Positions 2,980-35,049 of a DNA stretch of 35,049 bases are shown here, piece by piece (position 1 is the first letter of the stretch; every line of letters begins with the position of its first letter). The position numbers were made by a program, and so were the translations under genes. The stretch comes from Sistotremastrum niveocremeum HHB9708 (Eukaryota > Basidiomycota > Agaricomycetes > Sistotremastrales > Sistotremastraceae), in the NCBI GenBank assembly GCA_001630475.1, contig KV419455.1:85430-120478 (forward strand). The letters are read 5' to 3'. A model generated the notes under the pieces. It was not told where the DNA came from and searched no databases. It saw only the letters and a list, made by a program, of their open reading frames with translations.

Positions 2980-3787
2980 TAAGTTGCTTCGGCGATGTCG
3001 AATGGCATTACGGGTTCGATTCCGTGTGCCATATAGTATGGGGAATGTCCTGTTGATTTTCGGGTCGTAATACGGTCTGCCCAAGTAATGTACGGTAGGA
3101 TTTTCGGCCACTTAGATAGATCTTTCCCGCACGTTCGTACTAAGGCTTCTCGTAAGGAATAATGTTGTCGTTCTATGATTCCCTGTGCTTGCGAATTGTA
3201 CGGAGATATACGGATATGATTAATATGATATTTCTTAGAAAGCCAATCGAGGGCGGCTATCCAAGGTGCTCCGTTATCCGATACAATTTCTGATAGGGAG
3301 CCCCACCGGCAAAGAATGTCTTCGAAAATGAATTTTCCCAGAGTGCTTCCATTCTCTTTCAGTAAGGCTCTTGCTTCAGGCCAAGCGGTAAGAGAGCATC
3401 GTCCATGAGCTATGTATCGGTAGCCTCCTGATTTAGGCATATACATCGTATCTACATGAGCTTTGGAAAATAAGGATGCTGGAGTTGGTACAGTCGGTGG
3501 AATATGGATATGCGTCGTGTTCCTGTGTTGACAAATGTCGCATGTTTGTAAGTACCATTTGAGATCGTTTGATAGGCAAGGCCACCAGAAGCGATCAAAC
3601 AGTAATCGACGAGTAGGATAGAATCCTTTGTGACCAAGTTCGTCATGAGTTGCGATCAATAATTGTAAGCGTTGTGAGTAAGGAACTACGACTTGGTGCC
3701 GACCAGACTGATGTCGTTTGTATAATCTCCCGGAGTGAACAAAGAATTGCTTCATTAGGCGCGCGATTTTACGGCGAGTGGCGTCGG
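2980..3787 (-). CDS. Gypsy pol segment: integrase zinc-binding domain and DDE core
   Basis: This is the integrase core of the retrotransposon. It shows the N-terminal HHCC zinc-binding domain (HDELGHKG followed about 30 residues later by CDIC). The catalytic triad follows: first D in AHVDTMYMP, second D in VSDNGAPW, E in GIIERQHYS. The downstream motif GHSPYYMAHG is common in this clade. All catalytic residues are intact. Integrase joins the linear DNA copy to the host genome. The segment is bounded by a hAT-like element on its N-terminal side and by a MITE on its C-terminal side, and the reading frame crosses both. Confidence 0.93.
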
Positions 3788-5219: not shown

Positions 5220-5859
5220 TAGTGTTCTGAGGTCCAGTCACGACTGGACTTTTGACCCCCGGAGGGTGCGACTGGCAACTGCCGGTCCGGTTGCCGTCCA
5301 AAATTTGGCATGACTGGCAACTGCGACTGCGGTTGCGGTCCAGCAACCGGTCACGGCTGCGACCAGTCGCGCAACCAGTCATGGCCACTTCTTCAGAAAA
5401 AATTAGCTGCTATTTCCGCTATTCCCAGCTATTTTGGCGCTATTGTAGCTGTGAAATAGCGGAAAAATAGCCTCATTAGCCTAATTAGCCTATAACATAT
5501 GGCCTAATTTTTTCTGAAGTTTTTCCAGTCACAACTAGTCTTCTGTAAATATTTTAATCATTATTATATTATATATACTGTATATACACTTCATATGATG
5601 TGGTACATGCATATAGAGACCAAAATATACCAGATATGTCACCATAAACACCCATTTGAGACCCAAAATACCCTCTGGTTACCCTGGTTGGGGACCCTTA
5701 AGGGTCCTCGGTTGCGACCACGGTCACGACTGGTCATGACTGCGGTTGCCGGTTGCCTGATTTTCCAAGAACCTAGGCAACCGGCAACTGCAGTCCAGTC
5801 ACGGTCCGGTCGCGACTGCCGGTTGCCACCAGTCACAGCAACTGGACCTTGGAACACTA
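5220..5859. mobile_element. hAT-like non-autonomous element, GGTTGC-word family, TSD GGCATGCA
   Basis: It is flanked by GGCATGCA at 5212-5219 and 5860-5867. The termini are TAGTGTTCTGAGGTCC and inverted TAGTGTTCCAAGGTCC. The arms consist of GGTTGC/GCAACC and GACTGG/CCAGTC words. A 129-bp MITE sits inside the left arm. There is no transposase. It splits the reverse transcriptase domain just after its catalytic palm. Confidence 0.93.
5391..5519. mobile_element. Nested MITE with CTTCAGAAAAAATTAG ends inside a hAT-like element
   Basis: The ends CTTCAGAAAAAATTAG and CTAATTTTTTCTGAAG are identical to those of the 2882-2979 element. The interior differs, being made of AAATAGC/GCTATTT words. It lies in the left arm of the 5220-5859 element, so it is the later arrival. 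The flanking dinucleotides are TT rather than a clear TA, so the duplication is unclear. Confidence 0.85.
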
Positions 5860-27213: not shown

Positions 27214-30002
27214 ATGGACCCCGACGAGGTAAGTCCCTGCGCCTTCTCGTGCTTCCCTATTCAATTTATGTCAATAGATCGAGAAGATCATACAGGTAGT
27301 GTTGGACAGGCTCAGGCTCAAGCCGCGGCCGAGCCTGAGCCGGGCCGACGGCTTTGCGAGCCGAGCCTGAGCCTAAGCCTGTATCTGAGACGGCTCACGG
27401 CTCAGGCTCAGAGGTCGGTGGGCCGTGGGCCGTAGGCTTGAGCCGCGGCTTTCAATAAATAATATATATATTGATATATATCATAAACGTCTGATATCGC
27501 TATTACTTTTGAAGACTCGGAAGGGTTCTATCGCCCCCGCGAAGGTTGCGGCTGTCTCCGACCATCTCCGACCACTCCCCCCAGCATCGTCGACCAAGCT
27601 CGGACGCGGCGATGGCGTCGTCTTTGTCTCTTTCAACCTCACACTATACCCAAAGGATCCCATAGCATCCACTCACCAAGATCTCGACCCTCTAGAGCAG
27701 CTCCGGCCTTCGAACGCGACCTCGTCAAGCCCGTCATCCGACTCGACTCGCTCATCCTCGACCGTGCGGTCAACGATGCTCTTGGTCTACGCCAACGATA
27801 ACGTGCATCCTACTACTTCAAGTCGATATGGATACCGATAGCTTGATGGATTGATGAGGTCTGGGCAGTTTGCACCCGAATCGTGCGTTCCAATTCTGTC
27901 ATTTATTCGACCGTCACTGAATTCCATTTTCCTTCGTTTGCGACACTTCTGAACGCATCACCCACTTTCCCACTGCGTCGCCCACTATCTCATCGTCCGC
28001 ACTCATCGTCTCTCGACTTCGTACGACGTCTTCGACCCACGTCGCAATCATGACACGTGTCTGCTCCGTCGACACCATCTCCCCAATCAGTCTCTCGCAA
28101 CAATCTCTTGCTCTTTCTTGAACCACGCATCCGTCGTCGTATGTGCATCAACTTGCCCTTGCATTCCCCGTTGACCCCAACCTCAATCATATGTCTCTCC
28201 GCCAGTCAAGAGCGGACCTCGTTGGTACGCGTAGTCTCCGATTCCTTGCTCCAACGTGCTCAACGTCTCATTTCAAGCCATGCGAAGATAAGAGAGTGTC
28301 TGGTATAGCTTCTAGTAGTGTATTGTAGCTCTGTTTGACGGCAATAATATATGAGAACTCCTCTACCTGAAAGCCGCGGCTTGAGCCTGGGCCGGGCCTG
28401 AGCCGGCCTGATATGACGGCTTAGGCTCAGGCTCAGAGATTCTGAGGCCGCAGGCCGGGAAAGCCGGGCCTAAGCCGGCGGCTTTGAGCCGAGCCTGAGC
28501 CTGTCCAACACTACATACAGGCGACTGCGATACCTCCTGATGGCAAAATTACGTGCCCAAAATGTGGCAAACCCCTGCAAATGGCAAATTCTGCACATAA
28601 TCTGAGACAGCACCTGGGATCAAAGGATTGCGAGAAGAGACAGGCCATCAATAAAAAAAAACCGAAATATACTCAACAATCCCTTGCTGCATTTGCGAAA
28701 CCAAAACCACCGCAGCCGCCAAAAGCGGCGCCTGCGACGTCGTCGGTCTCCGTGCCACCTCCCATCCTTATCGACGACGAAAGTTTTTCCCCTCCCCCAA
28801 CATTATCTGAAGATATTTCAAACAACGTGGAGGGAAGAGATCACGCCGCTCCGCCACATTCCTTAGAGCCGGCACCTGAAGAAACGCATCAGTCCGAGAT
28901 GATCGACCTCACGACCGACGAGATGGGTCCACTTGCCTTATTCAAGATTGCGGTCGAAGCACTACCCCCTGACGCTGTTCCTGATGGCAAAGCGGGAGAC
29001 GGGCTATTCTCAGAGTTTGCCATCTCGTGTGAAGAATATATGAAGGACGTACCAAAGGACGGGCTGTGGGAGAAGCTGAATCCCAAACTGCATCACCTCT
29101 GTGATTCACAGGTCCCGATGGAGAAGGTAGTGGCTTCTATCCGAGGAGGCACTCACGGAGTGAGGGCACTCTTGGCGCTTCTGACAGCACTGGTAGCGAA
29201 GAAAGAGATAGTCGAGGGGATGTTGGAAAGTAAGTTGGAACGTCTGAGGGAGGCCATGAGTACATTGTGAGTTGAGATGCGAAATTAAACCTCGTTCGTG
29301 CAGCACTGAACGAATCTCAACAGTAAGGGAAAGCGGGTACAGCGTGAAGCGGTTGGTGACCAGCAGTCGGGAGCGAACAGAGAGCTGGGGGGGCATACGA
29401 GTCCTATAGACGTTGATGATCCCAATACTGCCATAACACTGCCCATGAACAAGCAGCTCTCGCCCGACGGATATCAACTACGCACCTTCGTTGGAGGCAG
29501 ACGAGCATACTTCGTCTGTCCCGGCCTCATGCTCATCTTTGAGCCTGGTCACCATCCTCTCCTCTCCTACCCATGGATCCTTCACTTCAAAATCAACCCT
29601 CCGTGGAGTACCCTCGTCGAAGACAGCATCATGTTCATCCGATCGCGGACCTGCCTTGATCGTGTTGTCGGCGACGCTGAATGTTGTCGTAGCTGCGCCG
29701 ATCTAATGAAGACCGACGTCCTACAGGGCATATTATCTCGCGATAAGAATGGCGTTCATGAAAACTCACCACACCATTTCCAACCCATCTCCGGTTTACT
29801 CGCCATTCTGGTCGTGAAGAGCGCGAGAGTCGACGCTTATCGATTAGTCCTACTAGAGGGTGTGGCCGGGACCCGGCAGTACGAGAGGCTGGAGCGGATG
29901 TGGAGTAGTGATACCAAAATTAGGAAAAAATGTCTAAAAGATAGGAGTATCCGTATGGTTACAGTGGCTGCCAAAAAAAAAATCAGCAAATTTGACTTCT
30001 GA
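27214..30002 (+). CDS. Zinc-finger protein of a basidiomycete repeat-associated family, 485 aa, hAT element as intron 2
   Basis: Exons: 27214-27228 (MDPDE), 27278-27295 (IEKIIQ, 18 nt), 28521-29266 and 29324-30002, total 1458 nt. Intron 1 is 49 nt and intron 3 is 57 nt, both GT-AG. Intron 2 (27296-28520) is a hAT-like element plus one copy of its duplication. The protein has an N-terminal zinc finger (CPKCGK, then HNLRQHL; C-X2-C-X10-H-X4-H). A Pro-rich linker follows, then an acidic/helical central part ending in a coiled-coil-like ESKLERLREAM. The C-terminal part has CX-type residues (CLDRVV...CCRSC) followed by GILSRDKNGVHEN. That last layout recalls a multicopy Agaricomycete family of uncharacterised zinc-finger proteins, usually longer at the C-terminus. 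This copy may be shortened: a MITE begins 14 bp past the stop. Function unknown; nucleic-acid binding inferred. Confidence 0.8.
27297..28513. mobile_element. hAT-like non-autonomous element, GGCTCAGGCTC-word family, TSD CATACAGG, acting as an intron
   Basis: It is flanked by exact CATACAGG at 27289-27296 and 28514-28521. The ends are TAGTGTTGGACAGGCTCAGG and its inverted copy. The arms are made of GAGCCTGAGCC/GGCTCAGGCTC words. The 900-bp centre has different composition and no recognisable transposase; an open frame at 27425-27841 has no motif. The left duplication plus first element bases give CAG/GTAGTG and the right duplication gives ACATACAG/G. Splicing there would restore the uninterrupted coding sequence exactly. 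Confidence 0.93.
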
Positions 30003-30015
30003 GCGCACAGGTGTA

Positions 30016-30142
30016 CTCAGAAAAAATCAGGACGGGTGCTATAGACTATTTAGGTTATTTTCCTGCTAATGTAAAATTTTTCAGCCAGAATAGCGCTAAA
30101 ATAGCAGGAAATAGCGAAAATAGCAGCTTAAATTTTCTGAAG
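30016..30142. mobile_element. Degenerate MITE related to the CTTCAG family
   Basis: The ends CTCAGAAAAAATCAG and TTTTCTGAAG and the AAATAGC-rich interior resemble the 5391-5519 element. The terminal match has decayed and no clear duplication is seen. It begins 14 bp after the stop of the zinc-finger gene. Confidence 0.7.
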
Positions 30143-30289
30143 CGCAGCCAACTTACTGATCTATATAAGGTTAAGATAACAAAGATACTAAACTTCTAAA
30201 GGCAGGAATTGATTCTCGTTGCTTGAGCTCAAACAGGGAAAGCAACTCCATGGTCAATTGCGTTCTAATATTGTCGCCGCCTAATAATA

Positions 30290-30712
30290 TACATGTGCAC
30301 ATGTGCCTGCCCTGAAGTAGACATGGACTAGGCATCCAGAGAGCGATGATAACAGCCTCCCTGGATTTACACTCCTGAGTCCAATGTGCAAACAGCTACT
30401 TATCCTTATTCTCTGTGTGTTTGCCCACAATCCCAGCACCTCAAAAACCCCTACTTTTGCCTCGTCGATTTAAGTTCTGCCACATGGATGGTGACACTCC
30501 AGAAACAAAAAGGAGCTGAACTTGAACCAAAGAGGCGGAAGTGGGCATTTAGGAGGTGCTGGGATGGTGAGCAGACACACAGAGAATAAAGAGAAGTAGC
30601 TGTCTGCACATTGAACTCAGGAGTGTAAAGCCAGGGAAGTTGTTACCATCAATCTCTGGATGCCTAGTCCATGTCTAAGGGCATGCACATGAGCACCTGG
30701 ATATTAATTACC
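30290..30712. mobile_element. Foldback element, imperfect long palindrome
   Basis: The left arm ACATGGACTAGGCATCCAGAGA (from 30321) pairs with the right arm ending at about 30676. The pairing continues inward imperfectly through CTCCTGAGTYCAATGTGCA, TTATTCTCTGTGTGTYTGC and CCCAGCACCTC around a centre near 30497, and outward to about 30290 and 30712. No target duplication is evident. It has no coding function. Confidence 0.8.
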
Positions 30713-32129
30713 CAGGCATAATTGTTGCTTATGTAGCATAACCTCTCTTACTGGGGTGCCAATCTTTCACCCATTAGATCTTGTGAACAAGTCCACTCTT
30801 TGTCTGGAAAATATACCGAAAAAGTTGACGTACGTTGACATTTTCAATACACTCCAAATTGAGACATCATTGACATGTATGATTAATATCATCCATACCA
30901 CTGATGCCTCTCTTAAGTGAGTTCTCTCCACTTGGTCAATGGGCTATCCGAGGAGTTCTGTCCTGACGCACTGTTTCCACTCCACTTACCCTAAACCAAT
31001 ACTATTTAGAATGAGCAGGCGTTGACCTCAGACCTACTATTCACTCAGGGTGCCACGGTTATTTTTAATAATATTACTTTTATCTCTCTTAGTAACCAAC
31101 TTTCATTTTCGCCAGCGAACAAGCATCCATTAATTAACGCCAACTTCCGATTTAAATCAACCAACTCCATCTTCTATCAGCTCTGGGATATCTGTACCCC
31201 TCTTATGTTGAATCTCAGCATTTAATGACCAGGATCTGAGGCGTCTGTGTCCAGCCTCTTACCCTTTTTCTCCAAATCAGAACCTTTTTTTTTAATCCAT
31301 CCACAAAACCGAGCCAGCGTAGGTAACTAACCTACACCGGAAGCCAGAATCAGACTCACATTAAGCAATCAATCGTGTTGTTGCTTCATGTTGTTGAGCC
31401 CCAGTCTTTCCTTCCATGTAGTAGGAAAAGGCATTTTTTATGTGTAGAGTAACTATTTTGACGCGGCGGGGTGCAAAATGTGCCGACATGCGACTTTCGC
31501 AAACTCCGCCATGGCGCGTCGTGTACTTGGGTGTCCGCCACTCCAATAAACACTTACAAACATAGCCACTCGTCACCGAACTCCAAAAGCTAATGCAGGG
31601 GGGGCGAATACCTTATTTTTCATTATTTATTAGAAATGCGAGCCGTAATTCAGCTTATATATAACAGATAAATAGTTAGCGAGGAAAATACAATAAATAC
31701 TGACCTCCCCTTCTGCGCCTATTGAAGCCTATGGACAGATGCTAATAAAAAACCATATTGAGAACGGATTCATAAGAGTCAAATTAAAACCATAGCACCC
31801 CAGCGTGGTGCTGTATTAACTAGGAGGTTCTCCGGTTAACTGCGCAGATCGGACGGGTTGCGGTGTTCTCAAAGACCTATGGACGTGTATACAGGTAAGA
31901 GAAACGTCTAGCTCCTATGGGATAGTACTCTTCAACGCGCACGATTTGATGTTGAGAGAATATATACCGTGAACATGTATTTTAATCTTCTTGGCATTGT
32001 GCCTGACTAGTTAATTAAGTAGGCTTAAGTATAACCAAACATGCAGGTTTCGCGTACACGCTGGCCTGCGAGAAGACTCCAGCATAAGGCACCATGTATA
32101 TGCACCTCATTAGTTATTCGAGGGTTTCT
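30713..32129. other. Unassigned region
   Basis: About 1.4 kb, AT-rich in places, with short open frames only. No motif, junction set, repeat or RNA gene is recognised. It probably contains the 3' flank of the minus-strand gene to the right. Confidence 0.5.
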
Positions 32130-33118
32130 TCAATCACCAGGACAGTGCTGATAATCACAAAACAGTCCATCAACGTAATAGATGTTTCGGGAGAGACGGC
32201 GGACTTTGTTCTGCTTGCCGATGGGAATTTGGAATGATCGATCATCAAGAGCATGTCGATCTCCAAGATGACAGGCTTCCGCACATTCATAATGGCTGGA
32301 TGTGCCATTTAGGACGGTGAGATGTGGGAAATTGTTTGCCAGATGTAGTCTGCTGTGCACGGGGCCTATGGTCCTAGCTGCCAGCGTCATGTGAGGATAG
32401 ACGATATGAATAACATTCTCTCCGATCATGTTCATATGAGCGGTCATGCTCAGGAACTGGAGACCATTAGTCAAGGTGCGATTGCTGCTCGGCATAATCT
32501 TTACGCCCATGGTTTTGAAAGGGGTCTGTTTCAGGTAGAGAAGGCATTCATCGGACGAGGCCCCACTGCCTGGTGCAATAAGATCGGGAAGGAGTCTGAT
32601 TTCTCGCCTAGAGAAGATTTAGATGCTGATACAGGCACCCAGGTCAATACGTACCGATAATATTCACAATTTTCAAGCCAGTCGCCTATACTCTCCATGC
32701 TGTTTTGTTTACGGCTAGTCGGACATATGATATGAAGCATTGAGCTAGAAGGACTGTCAGTTATTGCCGGCAAGCCCAATAAGTATCGGGTAGAGGCGTC
32801 GCCGCATATGTATGCGTCGTGGCGCCACAGAAGAGATAGAAACATGCGGGGTGCGGAAGACCAGGGCTGGAGAAATTTCACAAGATGTTCATACAGCACA
32901 TCTCTGAAATTTTCAACAGCGTAACACGGGGCTAGTGAATGTCCCTCGTGCATCAGTAGCAGCTCCTGAAGAATAGAGAGTGTAGTTTTAAGAGGGCGAT
33001 CTAGATGAGTGCTGTCCATAACGAACTGCCAGGGACAGACAGGTCCGACTATATATATATAGAGATTCCTATTAAGCACAGACAAGCTGATCAATCTATG
33101 CGCCATGACATGCTTCAC
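32130..33118 (-). CDS. Hypothetical protein, possible nucleotidyltransferase-like basidiomycete family, 299 aa, two exons
   Basis: Exon 1 is 33118-32655 and exon 2 is 32565-32130. The 89-nt intron (GTACGT...GGCAG) joins EYYR to GASSDECLLYLKQ in frame. The total is 900 nt. The start may be a later ATG (for example MDSTHLDRP), because the N-terminus contains a low-confidence hydrophobic stretch. Seen motifs: ICGDASTRYLLG, HIICPTSRKQ, AHMNMIGENVIHIVYPHMT and YVDGLFCDYQHC. The G-x-A-S-x-R-x-L-L-G plus later MN-I-x(7)-YP-x-T arrangement reminds me of uncharacterised Agaricomycete proteins with a nucleotidyltransferase-like core. The catalytic Asp pair is not evident, so activity is doubtful. Confidence 0.6.
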
Positions 33119-33951
33119 GCATCAATATTGTCCTGTAGATTGATGGGGCAACTGTATGCCAGTGATGTGCTGCATAATGATCAGACGTCTCTCCTGATGC
33201 AGCCATAAGGGGCCGTCATTGCATACCCGCGTGTCCCGGGAAATAGATGCACGCCTTACAAAATTTGATAGGGGACTCTGAACTGTAGGCGTCTTTATTA
33301 TACGCACAGGTACAGACCTGATCGATCAGATATACAGACGCATCTGCTTCTTTCCGTTGTGAGCGGGCCGCTCGCTAATATTGGCATCAGAGGATCACAT
33401 GGTAACATCAACTGTGGGAATGTGTATTGTATGGTAGATACCTTCTTAGGAGTAGGCCTCATGTTGACGTTCTTCTAGGCGGAAAATTTCAAACTCAGCT
33501 GGATCGGTCGGTCCGTTTTAGCTGTGTTTGAAATATAGTCGGGCAGTGCAGCTGGTGCGTAACATGGTATATGATGGCAATATTGATTAGATTCGAGATT
33601 GCATACTGTCCTGTATCAACAGACCAGTTATGGCTGTGAGTAAAAGATCTGGATGCAGTACAGGGTCATTTATGTCATGCCGTCATAGAGGAGTAGTTCC
33701 TATTACTTAACGCGTAGTTTGTGGCAGTGCACAGCTAATTATACCCTAACACGCGGACCCGTGTCACATCAAGCGGATCTTCCTGGGACATTATTATCTC
33801 TGTGCCCACTATAGGCTGCAGATTTCAGGACTCCCCTGTTCGACATGTATCTCCATCTGTCAATCGGTGAATAAGTACAGTCCCGTTAAATTTTCAGAAA
33901 TTCACAACATGCTGCAAAGGTGTACAGGATCACACGGGAGAACTGGCTATC
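33119..33951. other. Unassigned region between two convergently unrelated genes
   Basis: The region between divergent genes probably contains both promoters and possibly an upstream exon of the 33952-34749 gene. That frame is open upstream to a TTTTCAG acceptor-like site near 33897. Nothing else is recognised. Confidence 0.4.
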
Positions 33952-34749
33952 ATGTGCCATGCAGGCTCGAATCTTCCATGCAGTGGTTCGGTAGGAATTC
34001 TAATGCCTCACAATCCAGCTGTGGGCATCTCCATCTACGAGGGAAGCAGACCGCTTGCTATTGAGAATTTCTTTGTAGCAAGTATAACTCCTAGCCGGGA
34101 GTGCGTGTCACAGGAGGGACTGGTCTGGTTAACGGTAGAGGTGGATGAGCACAGGGGGATGACGGTGGTCTTTGGTGATGACATTGGAACATGCGTATCT
34201 CTAGGACAGGTTCGTACGGCACCGGAGGATCTGGATGAGATCATGGAAATGTGGCAGTGCGCATTCCATCATCGTCACCGAGACAGGCAAATTACCCAGT
34301 CTTTCAAACTGTTTCACAGTTGTGTCGGGACAGTCTCAAGTTTTGAGGACTGTAAGTATCAAGATATATTTTTAAAATAAGACTAACGGGAGTTTTATAT
34401 AGCTGCGCGTGTTCACGCTGGGGAGGAAAATTGCGCTATATATTGCCATGTTCTGCTTTCTGCAGCACATAAAATCTCAGTACTGCAGGAAAAAATTATG
34501 CGGCATATTGACAGCGTGTCTGCTGCAGGATCAGCAACCACATCAATGACCTTTTCTGACGACCAGTCCATCTCTGAGGAAGAGTCGATTTCAGAGAGTA
34601 CTGCAGAGAGATACATTATACCTCCAGGCATACATGACGTTCATTCTCGTCATGGGATCACGACCTCAGATGGCTGGACAGATTCTCGCCGTGGAGTAAT
34701 GAGCAGTCTGTTTGACCCAGACAACGTCGTAGACCGCGACTTTTTGTAG
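33952..34749 (+). CDS. Hypothetical protein, at least 248 aa, two visible exons
   Basis: Exon 1 is 33952-34351 and exon 2 is 34403-34749, joined over a 51-nt GT-AG intron (GTAAGT...ATATAG). The total of 747 nt keeps the frame. The frame is open upstream of the ATG, so an earlier exon could exist. The N-terminal half contains GLVWLTVEVDEHRGMTVVFG and a segment with DLDEIMEMWQCAFHHRHRD. The C-terminal half is Ser/Glu-rich (SISEEESISEST) and ends RDFL. No membrane span or known motif is visible. The function is not inferred. Confidence 0.6.
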
Positions 34750-35049
34750 AGGTTGATGTGCTGTCATCTGCTACTACCTGTACTATAATGGAGTAAGGAA
34801 CGAGCACACCTCACACCTACCCATTCAAAATTCAGTTTATTGTGTGTGGTGTAAATTTCAGCGCAGATAAAAGGTATTTTAAGACTCCGCTACGGAGATG
34901 AACATCTGTTGATGACAGATCTATTCCCCCCCCCCCAACATATCGTGATGTTTCTATCATGATGTAGATCTGGAATTAACGAAGTTGAAGAACAGACCAC
35001 ATTAGGAGCGTCTCGGTCACCCGGGGAGAGTAGGCGAAGTCTTGTCATC
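34750..35049. other. 3' flank of the last gene, no feature recognised
   Basis: It contains a run of 11-12 C residues near 34925-34937 and otherwise ordinary sequence. No gene or repeat structure is seen. Confidence 0.5.

What the first reader, a model, noticed from the sequence alone, without database searches (positions are those of the whole stretch)
27278..28530. A hAT-like transposon that would be an exact, lossless spliceosomal intron
The 1217-bp element has an 8-bp duplication CATACAGG. Because the duplication ends in AGG and the element starts with TAGTG, the left edge reads CAG/GTAGTG, a donor, and the right duplication reads ACATACAG/G, an acceptor. Splicing there removes the element plus one duplication copy and leaves the coding sequence exactly as before insertion (...ATC ATA CAG GCG ACT...). 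The gene is otherwise intact over 485 codons. This is an introner-like birth of an intron from a DNA transposon caught with all marks still visible. Seen: duplication, ends, junctions, frame. Inferred: that splicing occurs.
Basis: partly seen in the sequence, partly recalled or inferred. Interest (0 to 1): 0.92.

Follow-up and report, generated by a model that had tools for sequence, protein, structure and literature searches.

The report
Transposon insertion with chance splice-like edges
A small jumping gene has landed inside a fungal gene so that its edges look like the ends of an intron, but the left splice signal is very weak, the insert is far longer than this genome's usual introns, and the gene is broken further on by another repeat, so it is more likely an ordinary disruptive insertion than a newborn intron.

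Summary
The geometry is real: a 1217-bp element (27297-28513), 23-bp perfect inverted ends, perfect 8-bp duplication CATACAGG; removing element plus one copy restores an open frame. A paralogue on contig C38 has the same phase-0 first intron and reads straight across the insertion point, so the element entered an exon. 'Intact over 485 codons' is wrong: at about 29852 the gene runs into a second, 99.8%-identical repeat; a matching later half lies on contig C40, with stops and another insertion. Splicing is poorly supported: against 276 introns inferred from this genome the donor is at the 0.4th percentile and 46% of exonic GTs are as good; 1225 nt compares with a 53-nt median; the acceptor is good. 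Lossless edges arise at 3.6% of simulated exonic insertions. Three copies were found, two without AGG: not an introner. A second hAT-like family (436 ends) shows AGG at about the chance rate, but one such copy sits in sense in an F-box exon and is the better candidate for an RNA test.

The parts
27214..27228 (+). first coding exon of the host gene (ATG..., MDPDE)
   Evidence: frame and gene model; the C38 paralogue has a similar short first exon, MASN, and a phase-0 intron
27229..27277 (+). intron 1, GTAAGT...CAATAG, 49 nt
   Evidence: donor at the 95.7th and acceptor at the 67.8th percentile of inferred introns; predicted on the joined empty site
27278..27295 (+). 18-nt exon fragment ATCGAGAAGATCATACAG left upstream of the insertion
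   Evidence: aligns (EIEKIIQAT with ESEEIIYT) to a paralogue exon that is contiguous across the insertion point
27289..27296 (+). left target-site duplication CATACAGG
27297..28513 (.). 1217-bp non-autonomous hAT-type element
   Evidence: inverted ends and 8-bp duplication; two relatives at C12:181673-182910 and C25:137364-138572 share about 180 bp and 145 bp at the ends
27297..27319 (+). left terminal inverted repeat TAGTGTTGGACAGGCTCAGGCTC
28491..28513 (-). right terminal inverted repeat
27296..27301 (+). would-be donor GTAGTG (CAG/GTAGTG)
   Evidence: score -3.76, 0.4th percentile of 276 introns; 46% of 4032 exonic GTs score as well or better
28501..28520 (+). would-be acceptor ...CCAACACTACATACAG with branch-like CCAAC 13 nt upstream
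   Evidence: acceptor at the 61.6th percentile; 2.3% of 5272 exonic AGs as good; CCAAC is one base off CTNAY
28514..28521 (+). right target-site duplication CATACAGG
28521..29266 (+). exon downstream of the insertion
   Evidence: open frame, similar to the C38 paralogue
29267..29323 (+). 57-nt intron GTGAGT...CAACAG; the unspliced frame has stops here
   Evidence: the C38 model has an intron at a comparable place. The gene finder chose another intron here, 29230-29276, giving an early stop at 29326
29324..29851 (+). last gene-derived coding stretch, to about residue 436-437
   Evidence: paralogue similarity ends here; the repeat match begins at 29852
29852..32463 (.). second repeat that truncates the gene; at least 2612 bp
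   Evidence: 99.8% identical to C83:1-2612 and 100% over 94 bp to the end of C65

Best explanation
A non-autonomous hAT-type element, of which three copies were found, transposed into the second exon of a gene of a small dispersed family (weak BED-finger and transposase-like resemblance). hAT integration duplicated the 8 bp CATACAGG. Because the element begins TAGTG and ends CACTA, any target ending AGG makes a formal CAG/GT...CAG/G arrangement that could be removed without loss; this happened here by chance. The donor is so poor and the would-be intron so long for this genome that the main expected transcript, if there is one, removes intron 1, runs into the element and stops 24 codons inside it (MDPDEIEKIIQ-VVLDRLRLKPRPSLSRADGFASRA-stop). 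The gene was also cut at about codon 437 by another repeat and is probably a relic. Shown: insertion, ends, duplication, exon contiguity in a paralogue, truncation, site scores, chance rates. Inferred: lack of efficient splicing, loss of function, and that the missing half lies on contig C40.
For: Element, ends, duplication. Paralogue exon contiguous across the point and same phase-0 first intron. The gene finder given the real sequence starts downstream at ATG 28581 and does not choose the element as an intron, with short introns only or with a flat long tail. Lossless edges at 3.6% of simulated exonic sites. The retained reading frame stops inside the element. Truncation by a second repeat; a C40 stretch resumes at the matching place, carries an in-frame TGA and a further hAT-type insertion. 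Other copies of the family lack AGG.
Against: The acceptor is good (61.6th percentile) and a branch-like CCAAC sits 13 nt upstream, near the usual spacing. The frame downstream of the element is open, once one short intron is removed, to the second repeat, as it would be if the message were still used. The splice model rests on introns inferred ab initio (30 of 55 loci are P450 matches, a few loci overlap slightly), not on RNA. With no length penalty the finder did choose long introns here, but other ones, with an exon inside the element. A copy of another hAT-like family is also found in sense in an F-box exon with AGG.
Confidence: 0.77

Rival explanations
1. De novo intron: the spliceosome uses CAG/GTAGTG and ACATACAG/G, removes element plus one duplication copy and leaves the message unchanged (the first reader's view; the mechanism proposed in print for transposon insertion at AGGT).
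For: Exact frame restoration; exon contiguity in the paralogue; good acceptor and branch-like motif; mechanism described in PMC3443670 (passages) and TSD-recruited splice sites in PMC9860276 (passages).
Against: Donor at the 0.4th percentile; 1225 nt against a 53-nt median; gene truncated downstream; edges expected at 3.6% of exonic insertions.
Confidence: 0.13
2. Intron extension with exon skipping: the strong donor of intron 1 (27229) joins to the acceptor in the right duplication (28520), removing the 18-nt exon as well; product MDPDE-ATAIPPDGK stays in frame, minus six residues.
For: 27229 donor at the 95.7th percentile and 28520 acceptor at the 61.6th; frame stays open.
Against: The intron would be 1292 nt, and the competing acceptor at 27277 is good (67.8th percentile) and gives a 49-nt intron of normal size.
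Confidence: 0.06
3. The 18-nt stretch was never an exon: the old intron 1 ended at CATACAG and the element merely landed at the 3' end of an existing intron.
For: CATACAG as it stands before GG at 28520 is a good acceptor, and skipping the 18 nt keeps the frame.
Against: The paralogue's exon continues through the homologous residues, ESEEIIYT aligning to EIEKIIQAT, and the model of the joined empty site puts the acceptor at 27277. The homology here is only a few residues at 32-35% overall identity.
Confidence: 0.04

Closest known systems
Maize Dissociation (Ds, a hAT element) making an intron de novo (Giroux et al. 1994; seen here only as a reference entry in PMC3443670; not held)
   Same: hAT-type element in a gene; its title says that an intron was synthesised de novo by the element
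   Different: As recalled, there the spliced message was seen; here there is no RNA. Here the donor is very weak and the host gene is truncated.
Transposon-insertion model of intron gain at protosplice site AGGT (Yenerall and Zhou 2012, PMC3443670, passages read)
   Same: Duplicated AG-G supplies both sites and the coding sequence is unchanged on removal
   Different: Here the duplication ends AGG and the T comes from the element; the donor beyond GT is non-consensus for this genome
Introners (Gozashti et al. 2022, PMC9860276, passages read)
   Same: Inverted ends, duplication, splice sites drawn partly from the duplication occur in some introner families
   Different: Introner families there have 5 to more than 2,000 copies and median lengths of 30-654 nt, enriched in genes in 161 of 175 genomes; this family has 3 copies of about 1.2 kb, 1 in an exon. 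Ascomycete introners there have neither TSDs nor TIRs.
Second hAT-like family of this genome (TIR TAGTGTTCYRAGGTCCAGT; 436 ends)
   Same: 8-bp duplication, TAGTG ends, some AGG targets
   Different: Different sequence beyond TAGTGTT; the paired copies read in full are 506-640 bp; far more copies. No autonomous member was shown.

Membership tests
hAT superfamily | 8-bp target-site duplication | tested here: met
   3 of 3 copies have perfect 8-bp duplications
hAT superfamily | short inverted ends beginning YAGNG (motif recalled) | tested here: met
   TAGTG at both ends, 23 bp identical
hAT superfamily | mobilised by a hAT transposase with the same ends | tested here: inconclusive
   the element's 138-aa ORF has no Pfam match; 21 hAT-dimerisation matches in the genome, of which locus L027 on C20 has one similar end, TAGTGATGGCCGGGCCGGGCTTGGGCTC; its other end was not fetched
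Introner | family of many copies acting as introns in many genes (5 to more than 2,000 in PMC9860276) | tested here: not met
   3 copies; the other two insertion points lie outside predicted exons (models over 200 nt only) and have no AGG
Introner | length in the known range (family medians 30-654 nt) | tested here: not met
   1217 bp here, 1238 and 1209 bp in the other copies
Introner | spliced in transcripts | not testable with these tools
   no RNA data held
De novo intron by transposon insertion | insertion into an exon formerly contiguous | tested here: met
   C38 paralogue contiguous; empty-site model contiguous
De novo intron by transposon insertion | removal restores the reading frame exactly | tested here: met
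De novo intron by transposon insertion | splice sites that fit the host's consensus | tested here: not met
   acceptor fits (61.6th percentile), donor does not (0.4th percentile)
De novo intron by transposon insertion | splicing seen in RNA | not testable with these tools
   no RNA data held

The most novel reading that the evidence does not exclude
hAT elements of this fungus, whose fixed ends TAGTG...CACTA complete a donor and acceptor whenever the target ends AGG, are spliced out when they land in exons in the right orientation: this copy and the F-box copy at C4:1047495-1048019 would be two independent newborn introns with duplications and inverted ends still intact, in a group (fungi) whose ascomycete introners are reported to lack both.
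Probability: 0.1. Interest if true: 0.72.

Novelty: new member of a known kind. Interest (0 to 1): 0.32.

Why it matters
Intron birth from DNA transposons is known, but cases with intact duplication, inverted ends and an exact, lossless junction are useful because the ancestral site can be read directly. If spliced, this would be a TIR/TSD-bearing case in a fungus. As the evidence stands it mainly shows how often such edges arise by chance (3.6% of simulated exonic sites), a baseline that any claim of this kind should beat. It also points to a cleaner test case in the same genome, the F-box insertion on C4.

Tried and rejected
Orthologues elsewhere: the protein search scored the 8000 candidates sharing most words, none at E<=0.001, so only paralogues of the same genome could be used. 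Paralogues C4, C22 and C36 were looked at, but their first exons are too different to test the insertion point; only C38 is informative. A wider search for the family with a 16-mer at 2 mismatches gave 34 matches against 29 for the reversed control, and only the 6 already known ends were perfect. Interiors of the three copies: 47-52% identity by alignment against shuffled means of 43-44% (largest shuffle 47-50%); two of the three pairs exceed all ten of their shuffles, window/C12 most clearly, but this is of no use for dating. Pfam on host-gene pieces: zf-BED 19.7 bits against a cut-off of 20.6; TNP-like RNase H 13.7 against 24.6; both below cut-off, so the family is left unnamed. I first took locus L037 for an autonomous member of the second family; on rechecking the coordinates its two ends bound only 506 bp (143-648), which does not include the hAT domain at 1501-1668, so that was dropped. 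A control sample of non-AGG copies of the second family, to compare exon frequency, could not be fetched. For the F-box gene no paralogue spans the insertion point (three weak partial matches). The home-made gene finder is not fully sensitive: it missed the open frame with a CxC5 domain at C14 and, at this gene, chose another downstream intron than the 485-codon model, so 'no predicted exon' is weak evidence.

Full report
What was checked. The window is contig C62:85430-120478 of a 34.7-Mb genome in 111 contigs and runs to the end of that contig. Short introns, 111 P450 matches and KDZ-associated, retrotransposon and hAT sequences suggest a filamentous fungus, probably a basidiomycete; that placement is my inference, no name is given. 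The element is at 27297-28513 (1217 bp), flanked by CATACAGG at 27289-27296 and 28514-28521; its ends match as an inverted repeat over 23 bases. Its one ORF over 120 codons (138 aa) has no Pfam match, so it is taken as non-autonomous.

The host gene. ATG at 27214, intron 27229-27277, the insertion after codon 11, intron 29267-29323 and a stop ending at 30002 give 485 codons once the element and one duplication copy are left out. In the same genome a paralogue on C38 is 32-35% identical over residues 5-437. It starts MASN, has a phase-0 intron, and then reads ESEEIIYTLTDDGKCPLCG in one exon, aligning to EIEKIIQATAIPPDGKITCPKCG. So the first intron is old and the insertion point lay inside an exon. 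A gene finder trained on this genome agrees for the joined empty site in the first exon, the first intron and an exon running across the insertion point; further down it disagrees, taking an intron at 29230-29276 and a stop at 29326. The 29267-29323 intron rests on the open frame after it and on the likeness to C38, which continues past it to residue 437.

The gene is not intact. The likeness to C38 ends at residue 437. From 29852 the window matches C83:1-2612 at 99.8% and the last 94 bases of C65 at 100%; the three places share the edge ACTAGAGGG and differ before it. Residues 438-485 are therefore repeat-encoded. The C38 model has 3981 nt of coding sequence. A search with 619 residues of its later part found pieces on C38, C40, C4, C22, C36, C86 and C34; a tblastx of the later part against the window found nothing at E<=1e-3. 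On C40 the match starts 2.9 kb from the contig start, at residue 3 of the query, with a TAA four residues in; after that stop, by my reading, LNEKKSRLRRLKQIEDGK lines up with C38 from the leucine at which the window breaks off. Further on C40 shows an in-frame TGA (IIGIA-stop-EHAH) and is interrupted at C40:3519-4027 by another hAT-type element. I infer that C62 and C40 hold two halves of one broken gene; the halves were compared, not joined, and no read evidence was seen.

Would it be spliced? I built a splice-site model from 55 loci (202 kb; 30 P450 loci, 21 hAT loci, 4 others; a few overlap slightly), starting from GT and AG only; it settled at 276 introns: median 53 nt, +5 G in 95%, +6 T in 74%, +4 G in 2.5%. 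Intron 1 of the gene has a donor at the 95.7th percentile. The element's donor CAG/GTAGTG scores -3.76, 0.4th percentile; 46% of 4032 exonic GTs score as well or better. The acceptor ACATACAG/G is at the 61.6th percentile and only 2.3% of 5272 exonic AGs match it. 207 of 276 introns have CTNAY; the element's end offers CCAAC, one base off, 13 nt from the site. The would-be intron is 1225 nt. The training search was limited to 200 nt; allowing 1500 nt brought four introns over 200 nt, of 497-827 nt, so long introns are rare but not excluded. With the real sequence the finder begins at ATG 28581 and does not take the element as an intron, unless length costs nothing, when it picks other sites, with an exon inside the element. 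If the element is retained, the frame stops 24 codons into it.

Chance. Simulating an insertion with these ends at 83,985 positions of predicted coding sequence gives a lossless GT-AG arrangement at 3015 (3.6%), the NNNNNAGG type at 1183 (1.4%), and one whose donor reaches the 5th percentile of the inferred introns at 472 (0.56%); within this gene 39 of 1257 (3.1%). The present case is of the NNNNNAGG type and not in the 0.56% class.

The families. Three copies of this family were found: C62, C12:181673-182910 (TSD ATCAGCAT) and C25:137364-138572 (TSD TACCTCAT); the last two cannot be lossless and their insertion points lie outside predicted exons of models over 200 nt. Their ends are 87-94% alike; the interiors are 47-52% alike against shuffled means of 43-44%. 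A second family with ends TAGTGTTCYRAGGTCCAGT has 436 ends against 28 in the reversed control. Of the 100 ends that the call listed, two are preceded by AGG and five allow any lossless arrangement. A direct search for AGG before the end gave 106 matches up to two mismatches, in a capped list: three exact AGG ends (C4, C24, C90), one with AGG and a one-base difference in the end (C14), and two listed degenerate ones on C12 and C17; so at least four to six of about 436, against 1/64 expected (about seven). Flanks of the four clear ones were read: C4 lies in sense in an exon of an F-box gene (Pfam F-box-like, E 8.3e-08) whose frame is open across the joined site, in a low-scoring model (4.6) with relaxed ends; C14 lies antisense in an open frame with a CxC5 domain; C24 is in no predicted gene; for C90 no second end with the same duplication was found. 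Copies in the retrotransposon frame of this window (5220-5859, TSD TGCATGCC) and in the C40 gene (TSD GTCATGAT) cannot be lossless. So coding frames are hit with and without AGG, and nothing seen here shows that AGG copies are favoured, though the sample is small and the planned control could not be fetched.

Comparison with print. Transposon insertion at AGGT as a source of exact introns is set out in PMC3443670 (passages), whose table names Zea among the species and which cites Giroux et al. 1994 on maize Ds; that paper was seen only as a reference entry (not held). PMC9860276 (passages) reports introners with splice sites taken from the duplication, 5 to more than 2,000 copies per family, median lengths of 30-654 nt, and ascomycete introners without TIRs or TSDs. 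A search for 'introner' with 'basidiomycot' listed three papers (listing only); three other searches and one on intron gain and hAT in fungi were read as listings. The present element differs from introners in copy number, length and exon share.

Verdict. The anatomy is as described and the exon-insertion history is supported. The claim that a working intron was born is not: the donor and length argue against it, the gene is a probable relic, and the edge pattern is what a few per cent of insertions give. It remains testable by RNA, and the F-box copy on C4 is the better place to test it.

Noticed in passing
G000 C4:1047495-1048019 (L081): A 509-bp copy of a second hAT-like family sits in sense in an exon of an F-box gene with TSD CGTGCAGG; removal would be lossless and the frame is open across the joined site. 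Donor equally weak (CAG/GTAGTG, -3.76), acceptor fair (1.29).
   Followed up: partly
window 5220-5859: A 640-bp member of the second hAT-like family (TSD TGCATGCC) interrupts a retrotransposon frame on the - strand (aspartyl protease above Pfam cut-off, RVT_1 below it); by eye the reading resumes on the other side.
   Followed up: yes
L037 (C46) 143-648: A 506-bp copy with variant ends TAGAGTTCCAA(A/G)GTCCAGT and duplication AGAAGTAC lies about 850 bp from a hAT dimerisation domain (1501-1668) that it does not contain.
   Followed up: partly
L027 (C20) around 1141: hAT transposase locus with an end TAGTGATGGCCGGGCCGGGCTTGGGCTC resembling the ends of the window element; possible autonomous relative. 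The other end was not fetched.
   Followed up: partly
window 29852-35049 and contig C40 start: The end of contig C62 and the start of C40 may hold two halves of one gene parted by a repeat, so the contigs may be neighbours in the chromosome.
   Followed up: partly
L083 (C14:811950-813700): Another copy of the second family interrupts, antisense to its AGG edge, an open frame with a CxC5 cluster associated with KDZ transposases.
   Followed up: partly
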